Positions 21,899 to 31,147 of a DNA stretch of 64,000 nt are shown one piece after another. The stretch spans positions 3,162,001 to 3,226,000 of the forward strand of contig NZ_CP016895.1 in assembly GCF_001704115.1 (NCBI RefSeq), given 5' to 3'. The notes under the pieces are model-generated. The model was not told the origin of the DNA, did not search any database, and saw only the letters and a program-made list of their open reading frames with translations. Source of the DNA: Acinetobacter larvae (GTDB taxonomy: Bacteria > Pseudomonadota > Gammaproteobacteria > Pseudomonadales > Moraxellaceae). The first letter of the stretch is position 1. Every line of letters begins with the position of its first letter. Made by a program: the position numbers and the translations under genes.

Positions 21899-23269
21899 CT
21901 AACGATGACGCACAAAGCAGATAGCAAGTAAAAATAACGCCCCCATCAATAACACAGCGGCATGAAAAGCCAGTAGCTCAGCATGTTGTGCGCTATCGCC
22001 ATGTTGTTGCGCCAAAGCGGCAATCATGGTCATGCCGGTACCCAACACAGCGATGCCCATGGTCATCCCCAATTGGCGTAAGGTATTGAGTATCGCTGCA
22101 GCGAAATTACCATCTTCCGCATCAACACTGCTCATAATTAAGGTACTTGAGCCTGGTACAATGAGTCCCACACCAATCCCCATCAAAGCACCACAAACAA
22201 TAAATAATGCCAAGCTTGAATCGGCCTGAAAACTATACATTGCCAATAATGCTAAACCGGAAATCGCCAAACCAATTTTTAACAAATGCGCTACGGCAAA
22301 ACGTTGATGCAATTTGGCAAAAGCGATCGATACCACAGCTTGGGTTAAAAATTGCGGTGCAATCAGCCAGCCAGTTTGGGCAGCGCTTAATTGCACTTGA
22401 TTTTGATAAAACAGTGCAAAAACAAATAGTGAACTATAACCGGCAAATCCCAAGATAAAAGAAATGGCGTTATAGGCTAAAAAACGCTTATTTTTAAATA
22501 AATGATTTGGAATCAAAGGATGCTGCGCATGTTTTTGACGCCATGCAAAGGCCATCGTTGCAGCCACAAACAATAAGATACAGAGCAATAGCCAATGCCC
22601 CCAATGTGCTTGTTGCAAAGCGATGATGCTATAGGTCAATGTTGCTACAGCTGCTGCACTATAGAGTAAGCCTAAATAGTCAAAAGGTACGCTGCTTGTT
22701 TCTCGATCCACCTCAATCCCACAATAACCAAGATAGAGCGTCAATAGACCAACTGGAAGATTGAGCCAAAAAATACTTTGCCAGCCAAAATGATGCACCA
22801 TCAGCCCGCCCATTAAGGGACCGACAATCAACGAAAAAGCACTAAAGGAGCTCCAACGTCCGATTTCTCTTGCCTTATCTTGTGGTTGCTGAAAATGATG
22901 GGCAATAATCGCCAGCGCCAAAGGAATCAGCACAGCACCCGCAACACCTTGTACCAGACGTCCAATAATCAACAGACTGAAATTGCTTGCGAGCGCACAG
23001 ATCACTGAACCCATGATAAAAATCACGACCCCAAGTAACCATAAGTTTTTGCGTCCAATACGCTGACTGACCGCACCAACTGCCAGCATCAAACTCGATA
23101 AACTCAATGCATAACTGTCAATGACCCACTGTAAATCTGCCATATCACTATGAAATTCATCCTGAATACTCCCTAGTGCAAGGTTGACACTACTTAAATC
23201 GACCAGACAGAGAAAGGTACTGATATACAGCGCCGCGATAAGATAAATCGGCTTATGGCTCGCTTTCAT
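21899..23269 (-). CDS. DHA2-family MFS exporter (EmrB/QacA-like)
   Basis: A 456-residue inner membrane exporter with about 14 helices. DHA2 features include STFLCLVDLSSVNLALGSI in helix 1 (with the membrane Asp), LQWVIDSYALSLSSLMLAVG, SQRIGRKNLWLLG, and the antiporter motif RLVQGVAGAVLIPLALAII in helix 5. It diverges from the iron transporter operon. The shared promoter region holds a large palindrome and a Fur-like box covering this gene's -10, so iron- and TetR-dependent expression is expected. GGTGGAG lies just before the ATG. In this context it may export a siderophore, its breakdown product or a toxic compound (inference). Confidence 0.87.
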   Translation of the reverse strand: MKASHKPIYLIAALYISTFLCLVDLSSVNLALGSIQDEFHSDMADLQWVIDSYALSLSSLMLAVGAVSQRIGRKNLWLLGVVIFIMGSVICALASNFSLLIIGRLVQGVAGAVLIPLALAIIAHHFQQPQDKAREIGRWSSFSAFSLIVGPLMGGLMVHHFGWQSIFWLNLPVGLLTLYLGYCGIEVDRETSSVPFDYLGLLYSAAAVATLTYSIIALQQAHWGHWLLLCILLFVAATMAFAWRQKHAQHPLIPNHLFKNKRFLAYNAISFILGFAGYSSLFVFALFYQNQVQLSAAQTGWLIAPQFLTQAVVSIAFAKLHQRFAVAHLLKIGLAISGLALLAMYSFQADSSLALFIVCGALMGIGVGLIVPGSSTLIMSSVDAEDGNFAAAILNTLRQLGMTMGIAVLGTGMTMIAALAQQHGDSAQHAELLAFHAAVLLMGALFLLAICFVRHR

Positions 23270-23285
23270 GCTCCACCTTATATAT

Positions 23286-23304
23286 TCAAATGAGAATCAT
23301 TATA
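23286..23304. promoter_or_regulatory. Fur-box-like site in the divergent exporter/iron-transporter promoter
   Basis: The core AATGAGAATCATTATA agrees with the Fur consensus (GATAATGATAATCATTATC) at 14 of 19 positions over this window. It covers the -10 and start region of the leftward exporter promoter and lies just upstream of the rightward -35. Iron-bound Fur would be expected to repress at least the exporter. Confidence 0.7.
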
Positions 23305-23340
23305 TTACTTATTGACCGACGGTCGGTCAATAAGTATGAT
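23302..23340. promoter_or_regulatory. Divergent overlapping promoters built on a 31-bp palindrome (probable TetR operator)
   Basis: The palindrome runs 23306-23336: 15 bases, a centre G at 23321, then the exact reverse complement. Its core is GACCGAC-G-GTCGGTC. Each arm supplies a TTGACC -35 box. Rightward: TTGACC 23312-23317, 17-base spacer, TATGAT 23335-23340. Leftward: TTGACC (complement of 23325-23330), 17-base spacer, TAATAT (complement of 23302-23307). A bound repressor would block both promoters. The same core recurs at 29324-29338 before the receptor gene. The TetR protein at 26.4 kb is the obvious candidate. Confidence 0.75.
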
Positions 23341-23416
23341 GCAATACTGAAATACAGCGCATGCTTCCATCAAGAGCAACCCTTTATCTTCATCACTGAC
23401 AGCCTTTATACGCATT

Positions 23417-24559
23417 ATGAAAAAACTCGCCTTTCTGCTTTATCTCTATGTCCTGTTGTGCAGTACAACAGCTTGGACACAACAGCAGTTTCAAGCATTC
23501 ATGCTACAAGATCTCGCAAAACAACAAATCCAGATCAAACGACCTATCGAAAAAGTAATTTTAGCCAATGGTAACTTGGCCTATGCCGTTGCCCTCATCA
23601 ACCCGACTACAAATCCCTTTCAACGTATTCTAGCCTGGGGCGATGGCTTTAAAGTATCGGACTATACTGGATACCAAGCTTATCAACGGCGTTTTCCGGC
23701 ATTGTCATCCATTTATACCTTTAAAGACAATGATGTCAGCAGCGTCAATCTAGAAAAAATTATTTCACTGCGTCCAGATGTCGTGGTGTTCAACCTCAGT
23801 AGTAAGTCCACGGTCGATGCCTCGAAATTTCCATCGACACTCAGCAAGTTAGGTATTGCAATCGTCTATGTCGATTTTAGTTTAGACAGTGCCAATAACA
23901 CTGCACCAAGTATTGCCATCTTAGGGCAAATTTTTCAACAAAATGACAAAGCCAAACGCTTCAATCAATTTCGTCAACAGCAGATAGATTTGGTAATGCA
24001 AACAATCAAAAAAATACCAGCACAGCATAAACGCCCACAAGTTTTTATTGAACGTGCCGCCGGATTGTATGATGAATGTTGTCTATCTTATGGGCGACAT
24101 AATCTCGGACGGTTGATCCATCAACTCGGCGCAGACAATATTGCTGAACGTTGGATCAAAGGCTATGGCATGGTGCATCCAGAACAGCTCATGACCAGCC
24201 ATCCAGATCTCATCATCATGACTGGTGCGGATTGGAAATACTATTCGCCCTATGGGCAATGGATCAATCTTGGACCGGGTATCGATATTTCTAAAAGTCG
24301 TCGCAGTATGTTGGGCTTGTTACAACGCCCAGCTTATAAATATCTCACGGCAGTTAAACAACAACGTGTTTATGCTCTCTGGCATCCATTCTATGACAGC
24401 CCCTATCAATTTATTGCAATGCAACAAATTGCCAAATGGCTCTACCCCGATATTTTTAAAGATCTCAATCCTGAACAGAACTTCCAAAAACTGCATCATC
24501 AGTTCCTGCCCATTCCGTATCAAGCAGGTTATTGGTTCAATATGGACAAAAATTCATGA
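23417..24559 (+). CDS. Periplasmic iron-compound ABC transporter binding protein
   Basis: A 380-residue substrate-binding protein of the FepB/FhuD/BtuF type. Residues 1-20 form a signal peptide (KKLAFLLYLYVLLCSTTAW). The periplasmic binding pattern follows: a first lobe with ALSSIYTFKDNDVSSVNLE and LRPDVVVFNL, and a second lobe with HPEQLMTSHPDLIIMTGADW and QRVYALWHPFYDSPYQF. An unusual YDECCLSYGRHNLGRL stretch with adjacent Cys lies near residue 218. It is first in a three-gene operon, about 70 bases from the predicted TATGAT promoter. It probably binds a ferric siderophore, given the adjacent hydroxamate-type receptor (inference). Confidence 0.85.
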   Translation: MKKLAFLLYLYVLLCSTTAWTQQQFQAFMLQDLAKQQIQIKRPIEKVILANGNLAYAVALINPTTNPFQRILAWGDGFKVSDYTGYQAYQRRFPALSSIYTFKDNDVSSVNLEKIISLRPDVVVFNLSSKSTVDASKFPSTLSKLGIAIVYVDFSLDSANNTAPSIAILGQIFQQNDKAKRFNQFRQQQIDLVMQTIKKIPAQHKRPQVFIERAAGLYDECCLSYGRHNLGRLIHQLGADNIAERWIKGYGMVHPEQLMTSHPDLIIMTGADWKYYSPYGQWINLGPGIDISKSRRSMLGLLQRPAYKYLTAVKQQRVYALWHPFYDSPYQFIAMQQIAKWLYPDIFKDLNPEQNFQKLHHQFLPIPYQAGYWFNMDKNS

Positions 24560-25581
24560 GTCATCATTATCAAAAATTAGTGCACCGCCGCTTAATCATC
24601 TTGCTGCTATTGGCACTGATCACCTTATTGGCATTTATGGCTGAATTGGCACTCGGTCCTGCCAACTACAGTCTAGGGGCAATCAGCCGCGCCCTATTGG
24701 GACAATCTTCAGACCAAGCCTTAAATATGGTGCTTTGGGATATTCGTTTACCCATAGCCCTAACCGCAGTCTTGGTCGGAGCCAGTCTGTCTATTGCGGG
24801 CTTACAAATGCAGACGGTCCTCAATAACCCCCTTGCCAGCCCATTTACCCTCGGGCTTTCTTCTGCCGCAAGTTTTGGTGCGGCACTCACCATTGTACTG
24901 GGCATTAGTTTCTTGCCTGAGCAATGGTTGGTGTATGCGGTATCGGTAAATGCTTTTTTATGTAGCATGTTGGCAGCAGCTTTCATTTACTATTTTAGTC
25001 AACGTCATCAAGCCAGTACCGAAATGATTGTGTTACTCGGCACCAGTTTGGTATTTACCTTTAGTGCCCTCACCGATGCGCTACAGTATATTTCACCAGA
25101 ACAGGCAATCTCTGCCGTAGTATTTTGGAATATGGGCAGCCTTGCACGAACCAATTGGGTCAAACTAGCCATTGTTGCGCTCTGCTTTATCAGTTGTTTT
25201 TGCGTATTTGCTCGTCAATCATGGGCACTAACTGCACTGAAGCTGGGCAATAACCGCGCCAAAAGCTTTGGCATCTCTGTAGCAAGTCTACGTTTACAAG
25301 GGATTTTATTGAGCAGTGTTTTGGCTGCTTGCTGTGTAGCCTTTGTTGGCGTGATTGGTTTTGTCGGGCTGATTGGCCCTCATATTGCCCGTCTATTGGT
25401 TGGCGATGATCAACGTTTTTTATTGCCTGCTTCAGCTTTATCTGGCGCACTTTTACTCTCTTGTGCATCTGTTGCCAGCAAAACCTTAGTCACAGGGCAA
25501 AGTATTCCGATTGGTATTGTCACCGCCTTTGTCGGTGTTCCTTTATTTCTTATTTTGATCGTGCGAGCAGTTAAATTATGA
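24556..25581 (+). CDS. FecCD-family iron ABC transporter permease
   Basis: A 341-residue inner membrane permease with about ten helices, BtuC/FecCD fold. Family motifs: DIRLPIALTAVLVGASLSIAG, LQMQTVLNNPLASPFTLGLSS, and GFVGLIGPHIARLLVGDDQR, which holds the ATPase-coupling loop. ATG 24556 overlaps the binding-protein stop (ATGA), indicating translational coupling; the frame is open upstream to 24532. It probably works as a homodimer because only one permease gene is present. Confidence 0.92.
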   Translation: MSHHYQKLVHRRLIILLLLALITLLAFMAELALGPANYSLGAISRALLGQSSDQALNMVLWDIRLPIALTAVLVGASLSIAGLQMQTVLNNPLASPFTLGLSSAASFGAALTIVLGISFLPEQWLVYAVSVNAFLCSMLAAAFIYYFSQRHQASTEMIVLLGTSLVFTFSALTDALQYISPEQAISAVVFWNMGSLARTNWVKLAIVALCFISCFCVFARQSWALTALKLGNNRAKSFGISVASLRLQGILLSSVLAACCVAFVGVIGFVGLIGPHIARLLVGDDQRFLLPASALSGALLLSCASVASKTLVTGQSIPIGIVTAFVGVPLFLILIVRAVKL

Positions 25582-26348
25582 GTCATTTAATTCTTCAAGC
25601 CGTCGATGCACACTATGCCAATAAAAAAATTTTGCAACAGATCGACCTCGGTCCACTGGCAGCGGGACAATTACATGTCTTACTGGGTGCCAATGCTGCG
25701 GGTAAATCAACCTTATTAAAACGTATTTATGGTGAGTTAACAGGTCATGGGGAGATTTTTTGGGGCGCACAGTCCATATCTAAGTTAAAAAAAGAACACC
25801 CTCTTTTTCCGCGCTATGTGCCACAAGATACCCAAATGAACTCCAGCATGACAGTGTTTGAAGCAATCCTCATTCCACTCAAACAATCTGGTGCTTGGCA
25901 AGTTTCTGATGCAGATATGCGCAGCATCGATCAACTCATGCAACAACTCGCCATTGCACATTTAGCCGCACGGAAAATTCAACATCTCAGCGGTGGGCAA
26001 CGACAATTGGTTGCCATTGCACAAGCCCTCATCTGCCAGCCAAAAATTTTATTATTGGATGAACCGACCAGCGCCTTAGACTTACACCATCAATTTGAGT
26101 TATTACGCTTACTCAAACAGATCGCCAAAGCACAACAGATCTGTATCTTGACCATTTTGCATGATATCAATTTGGCTTTGAACTTTGCAGATAGCCTTAG
26201 TGTACTCCACCAAGGCGAAATCTATGCCAGCGGTACCCCACAACAGGTGATCACGCCTCAAATGCTTGCCGATGTGTATCGAGTACGCGCCCATTTGCTA
26301 CATAGCCACCACCAACAAGCCGTGGTGGTGGTCGAGGCTGCACTTTAA
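25578..26348 (+). CDS. Iron-compound ABC transporter ATPase (FepC/FhuC type)
   Basis: A 256-residue ATPase that powers uptake with the preceding permease. Walker A is GANAAGKSTLLKR, the Q-loop region is YVPQDTQM, the signature is LSGGQRQLVAIAQAL, Walker B is [13 protein letters not shown], and the switch His is in LTILHDINLAL. All catalytic residues are intact. It overlaps the permease stop by four bases. It ends two bases before the convergent tetR stop, so read-through would be antisense to tetR. Confidence 0.94.
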   Translation: MSHLILQAVDAHYANKKILQQIDLGPLAAGQLHVLLGANAAGKSTLLKRIYGELTGHGEIFWGAQSISKLKKEHPLFPRYVPQDTQMNSSMTVFEAILIPLKQSGAWQVSDADMRSIDQLMQQLAIAHLAARKIQHLSGGQRQLVAIAQALICQPKILLLDEPTSALDLHHQFELLRLLKQIAKAQQICILTILHDINLALNFADSLSVLHQGEIYASGTPQQVITPQMLADVYRVRAHLLHSHHQQAVVVVEAAL

Positions 26349-26350
26349 CA

Positions 26351-26965
26351 CTATTCAGCGCGCAGCATATTTAAATACTGCTGCGCGATGTGCTCTGAAA
26401 AGTCAGAAATATCTTTCAGTTGATTGGCAATCGCTTCATCGGCAACACCATGTACCCCGCAGTAAATCAAGAGCGCGGTTAAATGAGGTTGCTCAAGCCG
26501 CCAGATTCCAGCCTGCTCCCCCCCAGTTAAAATTCCAAGCAATTGCTCAACCACCATATTTTTTTCATTATTTTTGCGTTCATGATGATGCACCCCAAAA
26601 ACAATATCATGCACAGGATAGCTGTCTAAATAAGTCTGAATATTGGCAGAGACCCAAACTTTGAATTGGCTCACCCAATCCTCTGGGTCACATTGCGCAA
26701 CGGCTTGATCTAAAGCTTCAATAAAATAATCGATATAACGCTTTTTTAAGGCTTCAATAATATGCTGCTTAGACTCAAAATAGTGATAGAACGTACCTTT
26801 GGCAACACCCACACTGGCAATAATTTCGCTGATGGTGGTTGCCTCAACCCCTTTTTCTAAAAATAACGTTTGCGCGGCATTCATGAGCTCATCAATACGA
26901 ACTTCTGCTGGCTTAGTGCGTCTTTGGCGCGTCTTGGCGGAGGCGATTTGAGATTGAGATGACAT
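26351..26965 (-). CDS. TetR-family transcriptional regulator
   Basis: A 204-residue repressor with an N-terminal helix-turn-helix (about residues 20-65: LMNAAQTLFLEKGVEATTIS, then IASVGVAKGTFYHYFESKQH) and a C-terminal ligand-binding domain. ATG 26965 is preferred because GGGG precedes it closely and the predicted promoter (-10 at 26998-27003) would leave almost no leader for the upstream TTG at 26989. The gene lies between the iron ABC operon and the TonB receptor. GACCGAC-N-GTCGGTC palindromes occur in the promoters of both flanking units, so it probably represses them. Its own promoter lacks that motif. Confidence 0.9.
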   Translation of the reverse strand: MSSQSQIASAKTRQRRTKPAEVRIDELMNAAQTLFLEKGVEATTISEIIASVGVAKGTFYHYFESKQHIIEALKKRYIDYFIEALDQAVAQCDPEDWVSQFKVWVSANIQTYLDSYPVHDIVFGVHHHERKNNEKNMVVEQLLGILTGGEQAGIWRLEQPHLTALLIYCGVHGVADEAIANQLKDISDFSEHIAQQYLNMLRAE

Positions 26966-26997
26966 ATAGCCCCATTTATTTTCATACAATGTGGCTC

Positions 26998-27026
26998 ATT
27001 ATAGGTCAGCCCCACCCGATTCACAA
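26998..27026 (-). promoter_or_regulatory. tetR promoter
   Basis: On the minus strand, TTGTGA (27021-27026) and TATAAT (26998-27003) are separated by 17 bases, close to the sigma-70 consensus. The spacer overlaps one arm of the hairpin after the receptor gene. No GACCGAC-type operator is present. Confidence 0.65.
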
Positions 27027-27051
27027 TTTACATGCATGCACGGTGGGGCTG
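27007..27051 (-). terminator. Hairpin after the receptor gene
   Basis: CAGCCCCACC and GGTGGGGCTG form a 10-bp GC-rich stem around a 25-base loop that itself contains the palindrome TGCATGCA. It starts nine bases after the receptor stop. A U-tract is lacking, so it may stabilise the mRNA end or, as it overlaps the tetR promoter, act as a regulatory site. Confidence 0.45.
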
Positions 27052-27059
27052 TATTGGCT

Positions 27060-29285
27060 TTACCATTGATAGTCGAAGCTAAGACGAACATTACGGTCTT
27101 GACCGACAAAGCAATACATTTGCGAAGTACAGCTCGCCACATAGTGTTTATTGCTGACATTATCGACTTTCAATGCGATACTCGATTGTTTTAAGCTGGG
27201 TAGCATTGCATCCAAAGCATAATGCAGGCTGATATCCCATAATGTTGCTGCCGGAACTTTAAAATGATTTTTAGGATCGCCATAACTCGATCCCAAATAA
27301 CGTACCCCAGTACCTAAGGTTAAACCCGCCAACATCGTACGATCGAAATGATAATCTAACCACAGCGTTGCACTATGCTCAGGGGTTTGTGTCAATCCTT
27401 TACCTTGATAGGTCGTGTCTTTAATCAACTCATTATCTAAATAAGTATAGCCAGCATTGATATTAATCTGTGGGGTTAATTTTCCAATGGCTTGTAAGTC
27501 TAAGCCCCGACTACGCACTTCACCCGCTTGTAAATTAAAGCCCAAATGTTCAGCATCGCCAGTTTTTAAATTGGTTTGATTGAGCTGAAAAATAGCTGCT
27601 GTCAACAATAACTGCTGATTGGGCATTTTATATTTTAAGCCAAGCTCAGTTTGTTTGGTTTCCACAGGCACAAATAAACTGCCGTCATGTTTAGTGCCGA
27701 GTATTGGATCAAATGCGGTGGAATAACTGATATAAGGCACCCAGCCCTGTTCAAATACATAACTCAAGGCACCACGATAGCTCCATTTTTTTTCATTCTG
27801 ATTTAGCTCTGTCACGTTTGGAGAATAAATATTGGTTTTCTGATCATTTTTAGCATGGTCATAACGTGCTGCAACATTCAAGCGCCATCCCTGATAGGAC
27901 AATTGATCCTGCACATAAAAACCAATCCGATCAAAATCTTGTTGTTCTTTCCATGGTGCCGCATAACTGCTGCTAAAGTCAGGTGTCACTTCGGTATGAT
28001 AAGGCGGTTGATAAGGATCAAATAAAATAGGACCTACACTATATAAGGCATTTTTTAATGTGCCCGTCGTATAATCCACACCAACGGCTAAATCATGCCC
28101 AAGCGCTCCAGTATTGAATTGCCCTGTAATATACTGGTCAATAGAAAAAGTTGAAACTGTCGCTGGGGTATCCTCATAATAGCCTTTCAACATTGGGCGA
28201 CCATTCTGCTCTTGATAACCATAAACAATGCTACGATAAATATCTGAGTCAATATGCATATAACGTGCATTACTCACCAAACGCCATTGTTCATTCAAAC
28301 GATATTGCAGCAATGAACTCAGCGACTTTTGCGTACGAGATGAGCTATTCGCACGATAATCTGTATAACTCTGATGACGGTCCAATGCCGGATAAGTACT
28401 TTGGTTCAAACCATAAAATACTGCAGGTAGAGCATTATAATTGGGCAGTTCTGGTTCTCTGGTATAACTGCCCATTACAGTCCAGTCTAATTGTGCATTG
28501 GGACGCCATGTGATGGATGGCGCAAAATACAAACGACGATGATGGCTATTTTGAATTTGATTATCACTGTCTAATGCACTCACAACCGTACGATATAATA
28601 AACTCCCCGACTGATTTAATGGACCAGTACTATCAAGACCTAAACGTTTTTCATCATAGCGCCCATAACCAATTTGTATAGCGTGACGACTCTCTTCTTG
28701 CGGTCTTTTACTGATCTGGTTAACCACACCACCCCCCAAGCCCTGACCATATGTAGCCGATGCTGGTCCTCGTAATACTTCAATTTTTTCTAATCCAAAT
28801 GCATCGATTTGCGGTAACCAGCTACCCGGGTTACTCACCACACGGATTCCATCGAGATAATAATCTGCATCAACCCCACGAATCCGAGTTAAATCTAAAT
28901 AACTACCAAAGCCACCAAACTTTTCACTATTTAACCCCGCACTATAACGTAAGGCTTCACTGCTACTGTGTGCTTGTTGCAATGCCATTTGTTGCTGGCT
29001 CACCACATTAATCGACTGTGGTGTTTCAGCAAGATCGACTGCAATTTTATTGGCAACCTGTACTTTTTTAGATAAACCATAGGGATCTTGTTGCGTATTC
29101 TCAGAAGCCGCATAAACAATGGTAGGTAATACGGTAATGTCATCATCATCGCTATTTGGCGCAGCAAAACTATTCAAGGGCATCAACATTAAGCTGGTAG
29201 CAAAACACGTTGATGTACAGCATGCGAATGCGCATTGTTGCAATGCCATCACCAAGCGCTTAACCGGAAAAAAGATGGGTTCCAT
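27060..29285 (-). CDS. TonB-dependent siderophore receptor (hydroxamate type)
   Basis: A 741-residue outer membrane receptor. Order: signal peptide with several Cys, ending near NSFAA (about 41); plug domain with ETPQSINVVSQQQM, RIRGVDADYYLDGIRV and the plug end EVLRGPASATYGQGLGGGVVN; then a 22-strand barrel ending in the aromatic C-terminus SFDYQW. The late pattern NKHYVASCTSQMYCFVGQDR, with its Cys pair, is typical of FhuA/FoxA/FhuE-type receptors, so a ferric hydroxamate is the likeliest ligand (inference). A short leader after the operator-overlapping promoter supports the 29285 start; an inner ATG at 29249 is possible. Confidence 0.92.
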   Translation of the reverse strand: MEPIFFPVKRLVMALQQCAFACCTSTCFATSLMLMPLNSFAAPNSDDDDITVLPTIVYAASENTQQDPYGLSKKVQVANKIAVDLAETPQSINVVSQQQMALQQAHSSSEALRYSAGLNSEKFGGFGSYLDLTRIRGVDADYYLDGIRVVSNPGSWLPQIDAFGLEKIEVLRGPASATYGQGLGGGVVNQISKRPQEESRHAIQIGYGRYDEKRLGLDSTGPLNQSGSLLYRTVVSALDSDNQIQNSHHRRLYFAPSITWRPNAQLDWTVMGSYTREPELPNYNALPAVFYGLNQSTYPALDRHQSYTDYRANSSSRTQKSLSSLLQYRLNEQWRLVSNARYMHIDSDIYRSIVYGYQEQNGRPMLKGYYEDTPATVSTFSIDQYITGQFNTGALGHDLAVGVDYTTGTLKNALYSVGPILFDPYQPPYHTEVTPDFSSSYAAPWKEQQDFDRIGFYVQDQLSYQGWRLNVAARYDHAKNDQKTNIYSPNVTELNQNEKKWSYRGALSYVFEQGWVPYISYSTAFDPILGTKHDGSLFVPVETKQTELGLKYKMPNQQLLLTAAIFQLNQTNLKTGDAEHLGFNLQAGEVRSRGLDLQAIGKLTPQININAGYTYLDNELIKDTTYQGKGLTQTPEHSATLWLDYHFDRTMLAGLTLGTGVRYLGSSYGDPKNHFKVPAATLWDISLHYALDAMLPSLKQSSIALKVDNVSNKHYVASCTSQMYCFVGQDRNVRLSFDYQW

Positions 29286-29311
29286 GTCTGAGATCTTTTA
29301 AAAATAAAAAG

Positions 29312-29340
29312 ATTATATTTACCGACCGACCGTCGGTCAA
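29312..29340 (-). promoter_or_regulatory. Receptor promoter overlapped by a GACCGAC-N-GTCGGTC operator
   Basis: On the minus strand, TTGACC (29335-29340), a 17-base spacer and TATAAT (29312-29317) form a near-consensus promoter. The palindrome GACCGAC-C-GTCGGTC (29324-29338) covers the -35 and spacer. Its core and the flanking sequence GTCGGTCAATAA match the site at 23306-23336. Predicted transcription starts about 20 bases before the receptor ATG. Confidence 0.75.
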
Positions 29341-29341
29341 T

Positions 29342-29360
29342 AATATTGAGAATAATTTTC
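29342..29360. promoter_or_regulatory. Fur-box-like site upstream of the receptor promoter
   Basis: The core ATTGAGAATAATTTTC agrees with the 19-base Fur consensus at about 14 positions. It lies immediately upstream of the receptor -35 box and next to the TetR-type palindrome, the same pairing as at 23.3 kb. Confidence 0.6.
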
Positions 29361-29527
29361 ATTTCATTCTGATTCAAGAACTGGACACCGGATAAATCAT
29401 GATCGATATTTTACAAATAAAATGCAGTGCACTCACATGCACTGCATGCCGACTCAACACAACAACAAAGTCTGCGGCTAAATCTTAAAGCCTAAATCTT
29501 AAATCAGACAAACTGTTGAACAGCTTA

Positions 29528-31147
29528 TTAGTGAAAGACTGCTTCCAATGCTTTTAAGCCCACTTTCGGATCCAGTAAGCCATTATAAATTTCTGGTATT
29601 TCTCTAGGAACCGCAAAGAAATGATAAATTGCTTGCATCGCACCACGTACCGAATATTCCACGGTAAAGACTACGTCATCTTCAATTTCCACAAATTGAC
29701 CGACAAAGGCAAAATTCTCAGCGCCCTTTGGAATAACCAATGGTCGATCCCCCGGTTTACGGCATGCAAATAATGCCGAGGCATAAGGCATCATCACGGT
29801 CGTTATCTCGGTATTTGCTAATACATGCGTTAAAATATCATCAAAACCTAACTGTAAAATAAGCTCTGTTAATATCTCTGTCCCTGTCGCTTCACTCATC
29901 GGTTTTTTAATATAATCGCCAATATGATCAATCTGGAAACCATAGCCCCACAAGGTATAGCTTCCATCAGGTAGGTCTGCAAAATGGGGCTGTGCAGGAA
30001 CAACAATTGACAAATGCCATCCCGACTCAAACCATGTCATTAATGCACCCGTACCCGGTTGATTTCCCGTATATTCAATAATACGATTGAGCAAAACATC
30101 ATCTTTTAAGGTCAACGTAAAAGACTCCCATTTATGCTCGTCCACATTGCCACAAAATGTCATGGGACGACCAAAATCTGGGGCTTTTTGAGAAATTTTT
30201 TGCCATAAACTCCAACCATGATCCAAACGATCACGAATCAATTCAGGTACATCATCTTGAGTAGCATATCGAGAATCAGCTGTGATTGAGCCTAGGGTAA
30301 AAATAGCGAGATCATGTGCTGGTAAATCTATTTGTTCAGAACCTTCTGGCAGTTTGACATATAAGCGTGTTGCACGGCGCTGCCCAGTCTGTTCATCCTC
30401 AACAAAATCGGCATCTTCTACATAATGTCCAAAGCGCACATCAACACCTTGTGCTTGTAACCAACGCTGTAGCGGTAAAATCATGGAATCATATTGATTG
30501 TATTTTGTACGCTTCACACCAGCTAGGGTATGGATACGAGGTAACTCCTGAATAAAACGCAGAAAATAACGGCGTAACTCAGCAGCACTATGCCACTTCT
30601 GAAAAGCAAAAGTTGTACGCCACATCCGCCAAAAATTGCATGCAAAGAAACTATCGTCAAAAAACTCATCGATACGCCGACTACCAATACGTTCCTCTTT
30701 TGATGCTAAAAGGCGTAACATTTGTGCGCGATGTAACGTGTTTAAACCTAATTTTTCTGCATCGACAATAACATGTTGTGCATCAATCAAACGCGCTTGT
30801 GCATGTGTCTGAATACGCGCATTGAATTCAAGGCATTCTTCTCGGACAGAAATATCTGGGTTTTCTAATGATGGAATACTCGAAAATAAATCCCATAAAC
30901 ATAAATAAGTTTCATCGGTCAACATACGTCCGCCACGCGTCACCCATGCTTTGGCGGCATTTGGTGTATGCCCACCATCCATTGCACCCCCCGAAATATC
31001 TAATTCCTCTAAAATATGAATATGTTGTGGCGGCACTTGAGCATCACGTATCGCGAATGCAGCTGCGGCCATACCCGCCACCCCACCACCAATAATCCAG
31101 ATATGTGCTTGTTTTGGGTCAAGTATATTGTGTTGATTATTTTTCAC
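29528..31147 (-). CDS. ohyA: Oleate hydratase
   Basis: FAD-dependent hydratase of the former myosin-cross-reactive antigen family. It adds water to the cis-9 double bond of unsaturated fatty acids to give 10-hydroxy acids. The 539 residues cover the full family length. The dinucleotide-binding motif IWIIGGGVAGMAAAAFAIRD is at about 16-35. The flavin motif GGAMDGGHTP and the loop VTRGGRML follow; many homologues have Glu after RGGR here, while Met is found in a distinct subgroup. ACNFWRMWRTTFAFQKWHSAAELRR and YDSMILPLQRWL are further family blocks. It is a single-gene unit; the role is presumably detoxification of host or plant fatty acids (inference). Confidence 0.93.
   Translation of the reverse strand: MKNNQHNILDPKQAHIWIIGGGVAGMAAAAFAIRDAQVPPQHIHILEELDISGGAMDGGHTPNAAKAWVTRGGRMLTDETYLCLWDLFSSIPSLENPDISVREECLEFNARIQTHAQARLIDAQHVIVDAEKLGLNTLHRAQMLRLLASKEERIGSRRIDEFFDDSFFACNFWRMWRTTFAFQKWHSAAELRRYFLRFIQELPRIHTLAGVKRTKYNQYDSMILPLQRWLQAQGVDVRFGHYVEDADFVEDEQTGQRRATRLYVKLPEGSEQIDLPAHDLAIFTLGSITADSRYATQDDVPELIRDRLDHGWSLWQKISQKAPDFGRPMTFCGNVDEHKWESFTLTLKDDVLLNRIIEYTGNQPGTGALMTWFESGWHLSIVVPAQPHFADLPDGSYTLWGYGFQIDHIGDYIKKPMSEATGTEILTELILQLGFDDILTHVLANTEITTVMMPYASALFACRKPGDRPLVIPKGAENFAFVGQFVEIEDDVVFTVEYSVRGAMQAIYHFFAVPREIPEIYNGLLDPKVGLKALEAVFH

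What the first reader, a model, noticed from the sequence alone, without database searches (positions are those of the whole stretch)
23286..29360. One TetR operator plus Fur box controls exporter, ABC importer and receptor of a siderophore locus
Seen: a 31-bp palindrome (23306-23336) and a second site (29324-29338) share the core GACCGAC-N-GTCGGTC and the flank GTCGGTCAATAA. Each site forms the -35 and spacer of TTGACC-N17-type promoters: two overlapping divergent ones at the first site and TATAAT-type at the second. A Fur-like box adjoins each. A tetR gene lies between. Known: TetR proteins bind such palindromes and respond to small ligands; Fur represses iron genes. Inference: uptake is switched on only when iron is low and a ligand, perhaps the siderophore itself, is present, a two-key control.
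Basis: partly seen in the sequence, partly recalled or inferred. Interest (0 to 1): 0.7.

Follow-up and report, generated by a model that had tools for sequence, protein, structure and literature searches.

The report
Chelator-sensing TetR switch for iron uptake
In a bacterial genome, likely of an Acinetobacter, the same rare DNA palindrome lies in front of exporter, importer and two receptor genes that are likely used for iron chelates; a neighbouring repressor is predicted to bind it, so the cell would turn on uptake of a foreign iron chelator, possibly the pink bacterial pigment proferrorosamine, only when that chelator is present and iron is low.

Summary
The core GACCGAC-N-GTCGGTC occurs three times in the 3.74-Mb genome, with no copies at one or two mismatches. 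Sites track this TetR: 5 of 6 tetR-bearing and 0 of 169 other genomes of the genus hold an exact core. In 80 related loci, copies front the MFS exporter (58 of 61), the receptor (16 of 16) and, in ros loci, proferrorosamine synthesis genes (8 of 9). Fur-like boxes adjoin 42 of 84 sites, against under 1% of controls. No synthesis gene is among 16 neighbouring proteins scanned, so this reads as uptake of a foreign chelator. Best reading: TetR represses exporter, importer and both receptors; a ros-type ferrous chelator induces; Fur adds iron control. Binding, ligand and two-key logic are untested. Against: many tetR-MFS pairs lack receptors, the third site has a weak Fur match, and tetR itself has no operator here.

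The parts
21899..23269 (-). MFS exporter gene, DHA2/EmrB-like
   Evidence: MFS_1 161 bits; TIGR00711 EmrB subfamily 205.6 bits, under its 230.2 cut-off
23291..23305 (.). Fur-like box 1, overlaps the exporter -10
   Evidence: 1 mismatch to WGAKAATNATTMTCW
23302..23330 (-). Predicted exporter promoter TTGACC-N17-TAATAT
23306..23336 (.). Operator O1, 31-bp palindrome with core 23314-23328
23312..23340 (+). Predicted importer promoter TTGACC-N17-TATGAT
23417..24559 (+). Periplasmic binding protein gene, YiuA-like
   Evidence: Peripla_BP_2 64.4 bits; model matches YiuA structures at 32-33% identity
24532..25581 (+). FecCD-type permease gene (listed from TTG; an ATG at 24556 is a likelier start)
   Evidence: FecCD 270.8 bits; sequence
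25578..26348 (+). ABC importer ATPase gene
   Evidence: ABC_tran 102.5 bits
26351..26965 (-). tetR gene, predicted repressor (ATG start at 26965 preferred over the listed TTG at 26989)
   Evidence: TetR_N 56.9 bits; relatives begin at the matching ATG
26998..27026 (-). Candidate tetR promoter TTGTGA-N17-TATAAT without operator
   Evidence: sequence; weakest of the promoter calls
27060..29285 (-). TonB-dependent siderophore receptor gene
   Evidence: TIGR01783 358.8 bits, cut-off 223.5; best solved relative by sequence is the enantio-pyochelin receptor 3qlb
29312..29340 (-). Predicted receptor promoter TTGACC-N17-TATAAT
29324..29338 (.). Operator O2, exact core
29347..29361 (.). Fur-like box 2, upstream of the receptor -35
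   Evidence: 1 mismatch to WGAKAATNATTMTCW

Best explanation
The same palindrome lies in front of the exporter, importer and two receptor genes of a likely iron-chelate system, where it fits as -35 and spacer of their predicted promoters, and the neighbouring TetR is predicted to sit on every copy as a repressor until an imported foreign chelator, likely of the proferrorosamine type, releases it. Shown by sequence and comparison: three sites in the genome, their promoter-like setting, their link to this TetR subfamily, and Fur-like boxes at the two window sites. Inferred: TetR binds and blocks RNA polymerase; the chelator enters through receptor and ABC importer and is expelled by the MFS pump after giving up iron; the chelator, free or with iron, is the inducer; Fur keeps the window promoters low when iron is ample. 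The loop would reinforce itself, as a little import yields inducer, which yields more receptor and importer.
For: Three exact cores in 3.74 Mb and none at 1-2 mismatches; all three lie before transporter or receptor genes. Site and tetR co-occur: exact core in 5 of 6 tetR-bearing and 0 of 169 tetR-less genomes of the genus; in 369 class-wide genomes the TetR profile rings in 2, both with sites, and 2 of the other 367 have poorer matches. The distal receptor and the 366-aa gene behind it are 74% and 64% identical to genes inside the A. rudis tetR locus. Sites with at most 2 mismatches front 58 of 61 MFS, 16 of 16 receptor and 8 of 9 rosA genes in 80 loci. Spacer 17 gives a -10 of at least 4/6 in 74 of 98 TTGAC half-sites, other spacers 0 to 30. 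Fur-like boxes near 42 of 84 sites, 0.7-0.8% in controls. ros genes in 9 of 80 loci, while RosD rang in 1 of 394 genomes of the order of E. persicina, the query genome itself. E. persicina NBRC 102418 (L060) is stated to hold rosA-G (PMC9650351 passages).
Against: No binding or expression data. Many of the 80 loci have tetR and MFS without a receptor gene (61 MFS genes against 16 receptor genes), so the inducer may be broader than one siderophore. In four Acinetobacter loci (L005, L006, L008, L012) tetR sits by an alkylsulfatase gene instead. ros-linked TetRs fall in other clades than the window's TetR, and Serratia/Pantoea ros-locus receptors are only 37-41% identical to the window's. The distal site has only a 3-mismatch Fur-like box. 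A cassette inherited whole would also make site and tetR co-occur; the split-off sites answer this only in part. The window's tetR lacks an operator, unlike the divergent pairs elsewhere.
Confidence: 0.6

Rival explanations
1. The same TetR regulon, but the inducer is another chelator or a broad set of aromatic or cationic compounds; ros clusters merely adopted the switch.
For: Many tetR-MFS pairs stand without receptor or ros genes; alkylsulfatase neighbours in four Acinetobacter loci; the exporter is of the EmrB/SmvA kind; the receptor's best solved relative is the enantio-pyochelin receptor.
Against: Receptor, ABC importer and Fur-like boxes point to iron chelates; ros genes are rare yet recur beside this tetR in 9 of 80 loci.
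Confidence: 0.3
2. TetR controls only the exporter; the copies before receptor and importer genes are relics or belong to another regulator, and Fur alone controls uptake.
For: The operator is shared by divergent exporter and importer promoters, so an exporter-only role is possible at O1; the commonest arrangement in the 80 loci is tetR-MFS alone.
Against: O2 and the distal site have no exporter beside them yet keep an exact core; 16 of 16 receptor genes in the 80 loci have a site with at most 2 mismatches.
Confidence: 0.07
3. Another regulator reads the palindrome and the tetR link is only linkage.
For: No binding data here.
Against: Presence and absence of site and tetR agree in 175 and 369 genomes; split-off sites in G000 and in Achromobacter insuavis also occur with the tetR.
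Confidence: 0.03

Closest known systems
Proferrorosamine (ros) clusters of Erwinia rhapontici and E. persicina
   Same: Same TetR subfamily and operator beside ros genes, with receptor, binding protein and exporter (ros content from PMC9650351 passages)
   Different: The own genome shows no rosD relative and the window no synthesis gene among those scanned; only transport and regulation are left
SmvR/SmvA TetR-MFS antiseptic efflux pairs
   Same: TetR-type repressor and a DHA2 MFS pump, with dyads in the shared promoter (PMC6362122 and PMC8429429 passages)
   Different: Different loci: SmvR/SmvA of P. aeruginosa are PA1283/PA1282, while the relative here sits by cyoABC and phnW; published P. 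mirabilis smvR/smvA primers are absent from the P. mirabilis stretch with the palindrome; the MFS is far under the SmvA cut-off
Ligand-induced siderophore uptake by PchR/AlcR (AraC type) or FecI/FpvI (sigma factor) systems (recalled)
   Same: Uptake genes under Fur plus a ligand-specific regulator
   Different: Those are activators or sigma factors; here a TetR-type repressor whose operator lies inside the promoter and which also covers an exporter
YiuA-type binding proteins of Yersinia
   Same: Fold and 32-33% identity; solved with iron and small chelators
   Different: Ligand and regulation of the window protein are not known

Membership tests
TetR-family regulator | N-terminal TetR_N DNA-binding domain and all-helical two-domain fold | tested here: met
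   TetR_N 56.9 bits over cut-off 24; model pLDDT 88.2, matches TetR-family structures
TetR-family regulator | Binds a palindromic operator and is released by a ligand | not testable with these tools
   Palindrome and co-occurrence shown; binding not testable
SmvR/SmvA pair | MFS over the curated SmvA cut-off | tested here: not met
   NF011571 137.3 bits, cut-off 701
SmvR/SmvA pair | Same locus as characterised smvR/smvA in P. aeruginosa and P. mirabilis | tested here: not met
   Different neighbours in P. aeruginosa; P. mirabilis primers absent from the 12.2-kb stretch, best 5-8 mismatches of 20
TonB-dependent siderophore receptor | Plug and barrel domains and TIGR01783 over cut-off | tested here: met
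   Plug 73.3, barrel 161.7 bits; TIGR01783 358.8 over 223.5
FhuA or ferrioxamine B receptor equivalog | Score over the curated equivalog cut-off | tested here: not met
   NF007465 459.8 of 803; NF010650 386.5 of 904
FecCD-type iron-chelate ABC importer | Peripla_BP_2, FecCD and ABC_tran in one operon | tested here: met
   64.4, 270.8 and 102.5 bits
Proferrorosamine producer (ros cluster) | RosD (AOC_like) and other ros genes present | tested here: not met
   No AOC_like match in G000, 0 of 175 genomes of the genus over the cut-off; the other ros genes were not searched in the whole genome
Fur regulon | Fur-like box at the promoter | tested here: met
   One mismatch at both window sites; distal site only 3 mismatches
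Fur regulon | Fur binding and iron repression | not testable with these tools
   Needs footprint and expression data

The most novel reading that the evidence does not exclude
A widespread proteobacterial TetR-MFS switch, kin to antiseptic-efflux pairs, is at root a ferrous-chelator trafficking system: the TetR senses the chelate itself through an invariant His/Asp/Arg set, and one operator locks synthesis (in ros producers), export, uptake and recycling into a single on-off unit that non-producers such as this Acinetobacter have kept as a piracy module.
Probability: 0.3. Interest if true: 0.75.

Novelty: new variant of a known kind. Interest (0 to 1): 0.57.

Why it matters
It would be a repressor-type, ligand-gated switch on siderophore piracy genes that also covers an exporter. 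It names a testable ligand class, proferrorosamine-type ferrous chelators; my paper searches showed no report of this operator or of regulation of ros uptake, with the founding ros paper not held. It also suggests a natural role for TetR-MFS pairs of a kind otherwise discussed as biocide pumps. The operator is rare enough that a plain pattern search predicts the regulon in a genome.

Tried and rejected
Rejected: sites as chance (0.006 expected, 3 found). Rejected: identity with SmvR/SmvA. Rejected: a PA3973-type regulator, whose published motif differs (PMC9736018 passages). Rejected: ferrichrome or ferrioxamine B as named ligand from family models, all under cut-off. Led nowhere: structure searches with the TetR model listed many TetR-family entries (EthR2, QacR, FadR, PfmR and others) and no ligand hint; no coordinates were at hand to see whether the conserved His/Asp/Arg residues cluster. 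Led nowhere: no RosD relative in the plasmid collection; the operator string in 0 held papers; one six-term paper search empty. Weak points: my ORF caller chose wrong frames in several GC-rich loci, so gene content was taken from tblastn with known proteins. In one search three MFS genes counted as misses (L020, L056, L063) have a 1-mismatch site overlapping the tblastn-extended 5' end; the one rosA miss is L058. One search dropped 2 of 86 sites as duplicates. One search left out L007 and L141 as duplicates and skipped hits under 500 query residues or with a stop; two distant rows (L043, L054) stayed in. One search aligned the window and 43 of 80 loci; one search aligned 13 binding proteins; one search covered the genomes of 23 of 80 loci; of 15 plasmid-collection records with the TetR I read 8. 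Whole-genome searches score a capped number of candidates per genome (17, 6, 8).
Full report
WHAT IS THERE. The window lies in a one-contig genome of 3.74 Mb, G000. The genus is Acinetobacter by inference: the nearest tetR relatives are in named Acinetobacter species (79-84% identity). From left to right: a DHA2/EmrB-like MFS exporter (-, 21899-23269); an operon of periplasmic binding protein, FecCD permease and ATPase (+, 23417-26348); tetR (-); a TonB-dependent siderophore receptor (-, 27060-29285); then oleate hydratase, hisC-like and hisD-like genes. None of the 16 proteins scanned between 13788 and 34126 is a siderophore synthesis enzyme.

THE SITES. Each site supplies the -35 hexamer and part of a 17-bp spacer: -10 TATGAT for the importer, TAATAT for the exporter, TATAAT for the receptor. 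Fur-like boxes with one mismatch adjoin both. Genome-wide the core occurs three times exactly, with none at one or two mismatches and 33 places at three, against 92 for the reversed control pattern (forward strand). Base composition predicts about 0.006 exact copies.

THE THIRD SITE. The copy at C1:2271628-2271642 lies just after dnaB (name recalled from the protein sequence) and 53 bp before the predicted start of a second TonB receptor, in a TTGACC-N17-TACAAT setting. That receptor (74%) and the 366-aa gene behind it (64%) have their relatives inside the tetR locus of A. rudis (G081 is taken as A. rudis because its site coordinates match those of L007's genome). At E up to 1e-150 the distal receptor was found in 2 of 175 genomes of the genus, both tetR-bearing. 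So the distal operon looks like a split-off part of the same system, joined to the rest by the shared operator.

SITE AND REGULATOR TRAVEL TOGETHER. Of 175 genomes of the genus, 6 have the tetR (E up to 1e-30) and 5 of these hold an exact core; 0 of the other 169 do. A named locus with this tetR but no site (A. ursingii, L006) has what look like transposase genes (recalled from sequence, no family call) where the exporter would be; I take the sixth genome to be of this kind, unproven. In 369 genomes drawn from the class the TetR profile rings in 2, both with sites, one having two sites 18 bp apart beside tetR; 2 of the other 367 have poorer matches. In 23 genomes of related loci a 17-base pattern gave, by my count with the two strands merged, 35 distinct sites in 22 genomes; by coordinates 34 lie in or within about 15 kb of the tetR locus and one, in Achromobacter insuavis, lies on another contig before an MFS relative. 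Caveat: a cassette inherited whole would carry site and gene together; the split-off sites are the stronger evidence.

WHAT THE SITES FRONT. In the 80 best tetR loci (of 326 relatives), sites with at most 2 mismatches lie within 450 bp upstream of 58 of 61 MFS genes, 16 of 16 receptor genes and 8 of 9 rosA genes; with at most 1 mismatch the counts are 56, 11 and 4. Of 78 sites with at most 1 mismatch, 72 were assigned to these genes. Beside tetR the half-site facing it has TTGAC in 4 cases and lacks it in 47. At spacer 17, 74 of 98 TTGAC half-sites have a -10 of at least 4/6; other spacers from 14 to 21 give 0 to 30. A Fur-like box with at most 2 mismatches lies within 60 bp of 42 of 84 sites, against 0.7% of random windows from the same loci and 0.8% of shuffled flanks. 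Outside that set, all five plasmid-collection records read that have both the TetR and an MFS relative show a site with at most 1 mismatch between them; of three alphaproteobacterial records without the MFS relative one shows a 1-mismatch site, one a 2-mismatch site and one none.

THE CHEMICAL LEAD. Nine of the 80 loci carry relatives of proferrorosamine genes: Erwinia (2), Serratia (3), Pantoea, Providencia, Xenorhabdus and Photobacterium. PMC9650351 (passages) says that the pink siderophore proferrorosamine is made by rosA-G and that the cluster is in all E. persicina strains of its study, NBRC 102418 (the strain of L060) among them. The gene kinds fit the pathway told in PMC11481915 (passages): a picolinate start, one type I PKS step, and the PLP enzyme RosC using O-acetylserine. 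In E. persicina the palindrome fronts rosA, an 83-aa gene that looks like a carrier protein (recalled), the binding-protein/receptor pair and, at 2 mismatches, the exporter. ros genes are rare: RosD rang in 1 of 394 genomes of the order of E. persicina, the query genome itself. G000 has no RosD-family match; the other ros genes were not searched there. Hence the reading: uptake and export of a chelator made by others. The names rosA-F in my tables were given by order and family, not taken from the deposited ros sequences.

OTHER PARTNERS. Two alternative modules go with the receptor-ABC set: an NtaA/DmoA-type flavin monooxygenase (for example Pseudomonas, Halomonas, Photobacterium, Erwinia), or an MmgE/PrpD protein and/or the 366-aa protein with a weak FGE-sulfatase match (for example Marinobacterium, Thiorhodococcus, Achromobacter, Serratia, Acinetobacter). 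No locus shows both. The window receptor groups with receptors of the first set (support 81/79, weak), the distal receptor with those of the second (89/94). G000 has only distant NtaA relatives (31-40%). I infer that these modules process the chelate after import.

THE REGULATOR. The alignment of 44 TetRs shows, in the ligand domain, invariant W104, Y112, H119, D120, R130, W155, H172 and D176 and a conserved HHHHDR-like stretch (VHHHERK in the window). That would suit a metal chelate (inference). The model is confident (mean pLDDT 88.2) but matches the family broadly. The binding protein resembles YiuA (32-33% identity), solved among others with iron and small chelators.

HOW IT LIKELY WORKS. 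TetR on the -35 and spacer blocks RNA polymerase at four promoters over three sites (inferred). Trace uptake brings the chelator in; in the cytoplasm it, or its iron complex, releases TetR (inferred). Receptor, importer and exporter rise together, so iron is taken and the stripped chelator expelled (inferred). Fur likely dampens the window promoters in iron plenty; its box overlaps the -10 only at the exporter promoter, so its effect on importer and receptor needs test. The window's tetR has no operator of its own and a candidate promoter of its own.

LIMITS. No experiment; the ligand is an association. 61 MFS genes stand against 16 receptor genes in the 80 loci, and four Acinetobacter loci pair tetR with an alkylsulfatase. 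ros-linked TetRs lie in clades apart from the window's. Literature: I saw nine search listings and passages of six papers, plus the outline and abstract of one of them; Born et al. 2016 is not held. I say only that those searches showed no report of this operator or of regulation of ros uptake.

Noticed in passing
L163 (Salmonella enterica IncHI2A plasmid CP048303.1, 90557-109117): A tetR-MFS pair with an exact core between, a relative of the 366-aa protein behind tetR, and a 2-mismatch site before an EamA transporter gene, between IS26 copies; the stretch also carries tet(C).
   Followed up: partly
L005, L006, L008, L012 (Acinetobacter loci): Close relatives of this tetR sit beside a 650-660-aa alkylsulfatase gene instead of receptor and importer genes; in L006 and L012 the exporter side looks disrupted by mobile elements.
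   Followed up: partly
L013-L026, L042, L138, L139: An NtaA/DmoA-type monooxygenase and an MmgE/PrpD or 366-aa protein seem to replace each other beside the same receptor-importer genes.
   Followed up: partly
L139 2120-2950: The A. rudis locus adds a siderophore-interacting (SIP) flavin reductase gene next to the 366-aa gene; whether G000 has one could not be searched.
   Followed up: no
window 27000-27050: A 9-bp inverted repeat (AGCCCCACC / GGTGGGGCT) between receptor and tetR, without a T run; it may end receptor transcripts or overlap the tetR promoter (read).
   Followed up: no
window 29528-31147: Oleate hydratase gene directly upstream of the receptor, same strand; no link to the regulon was tested.
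   Followed up: no
G471:C102:103448-103482 (loci L150, L152): A distant class member has two operator copies 18 bp apart beside its tetR.
   Followed up: no
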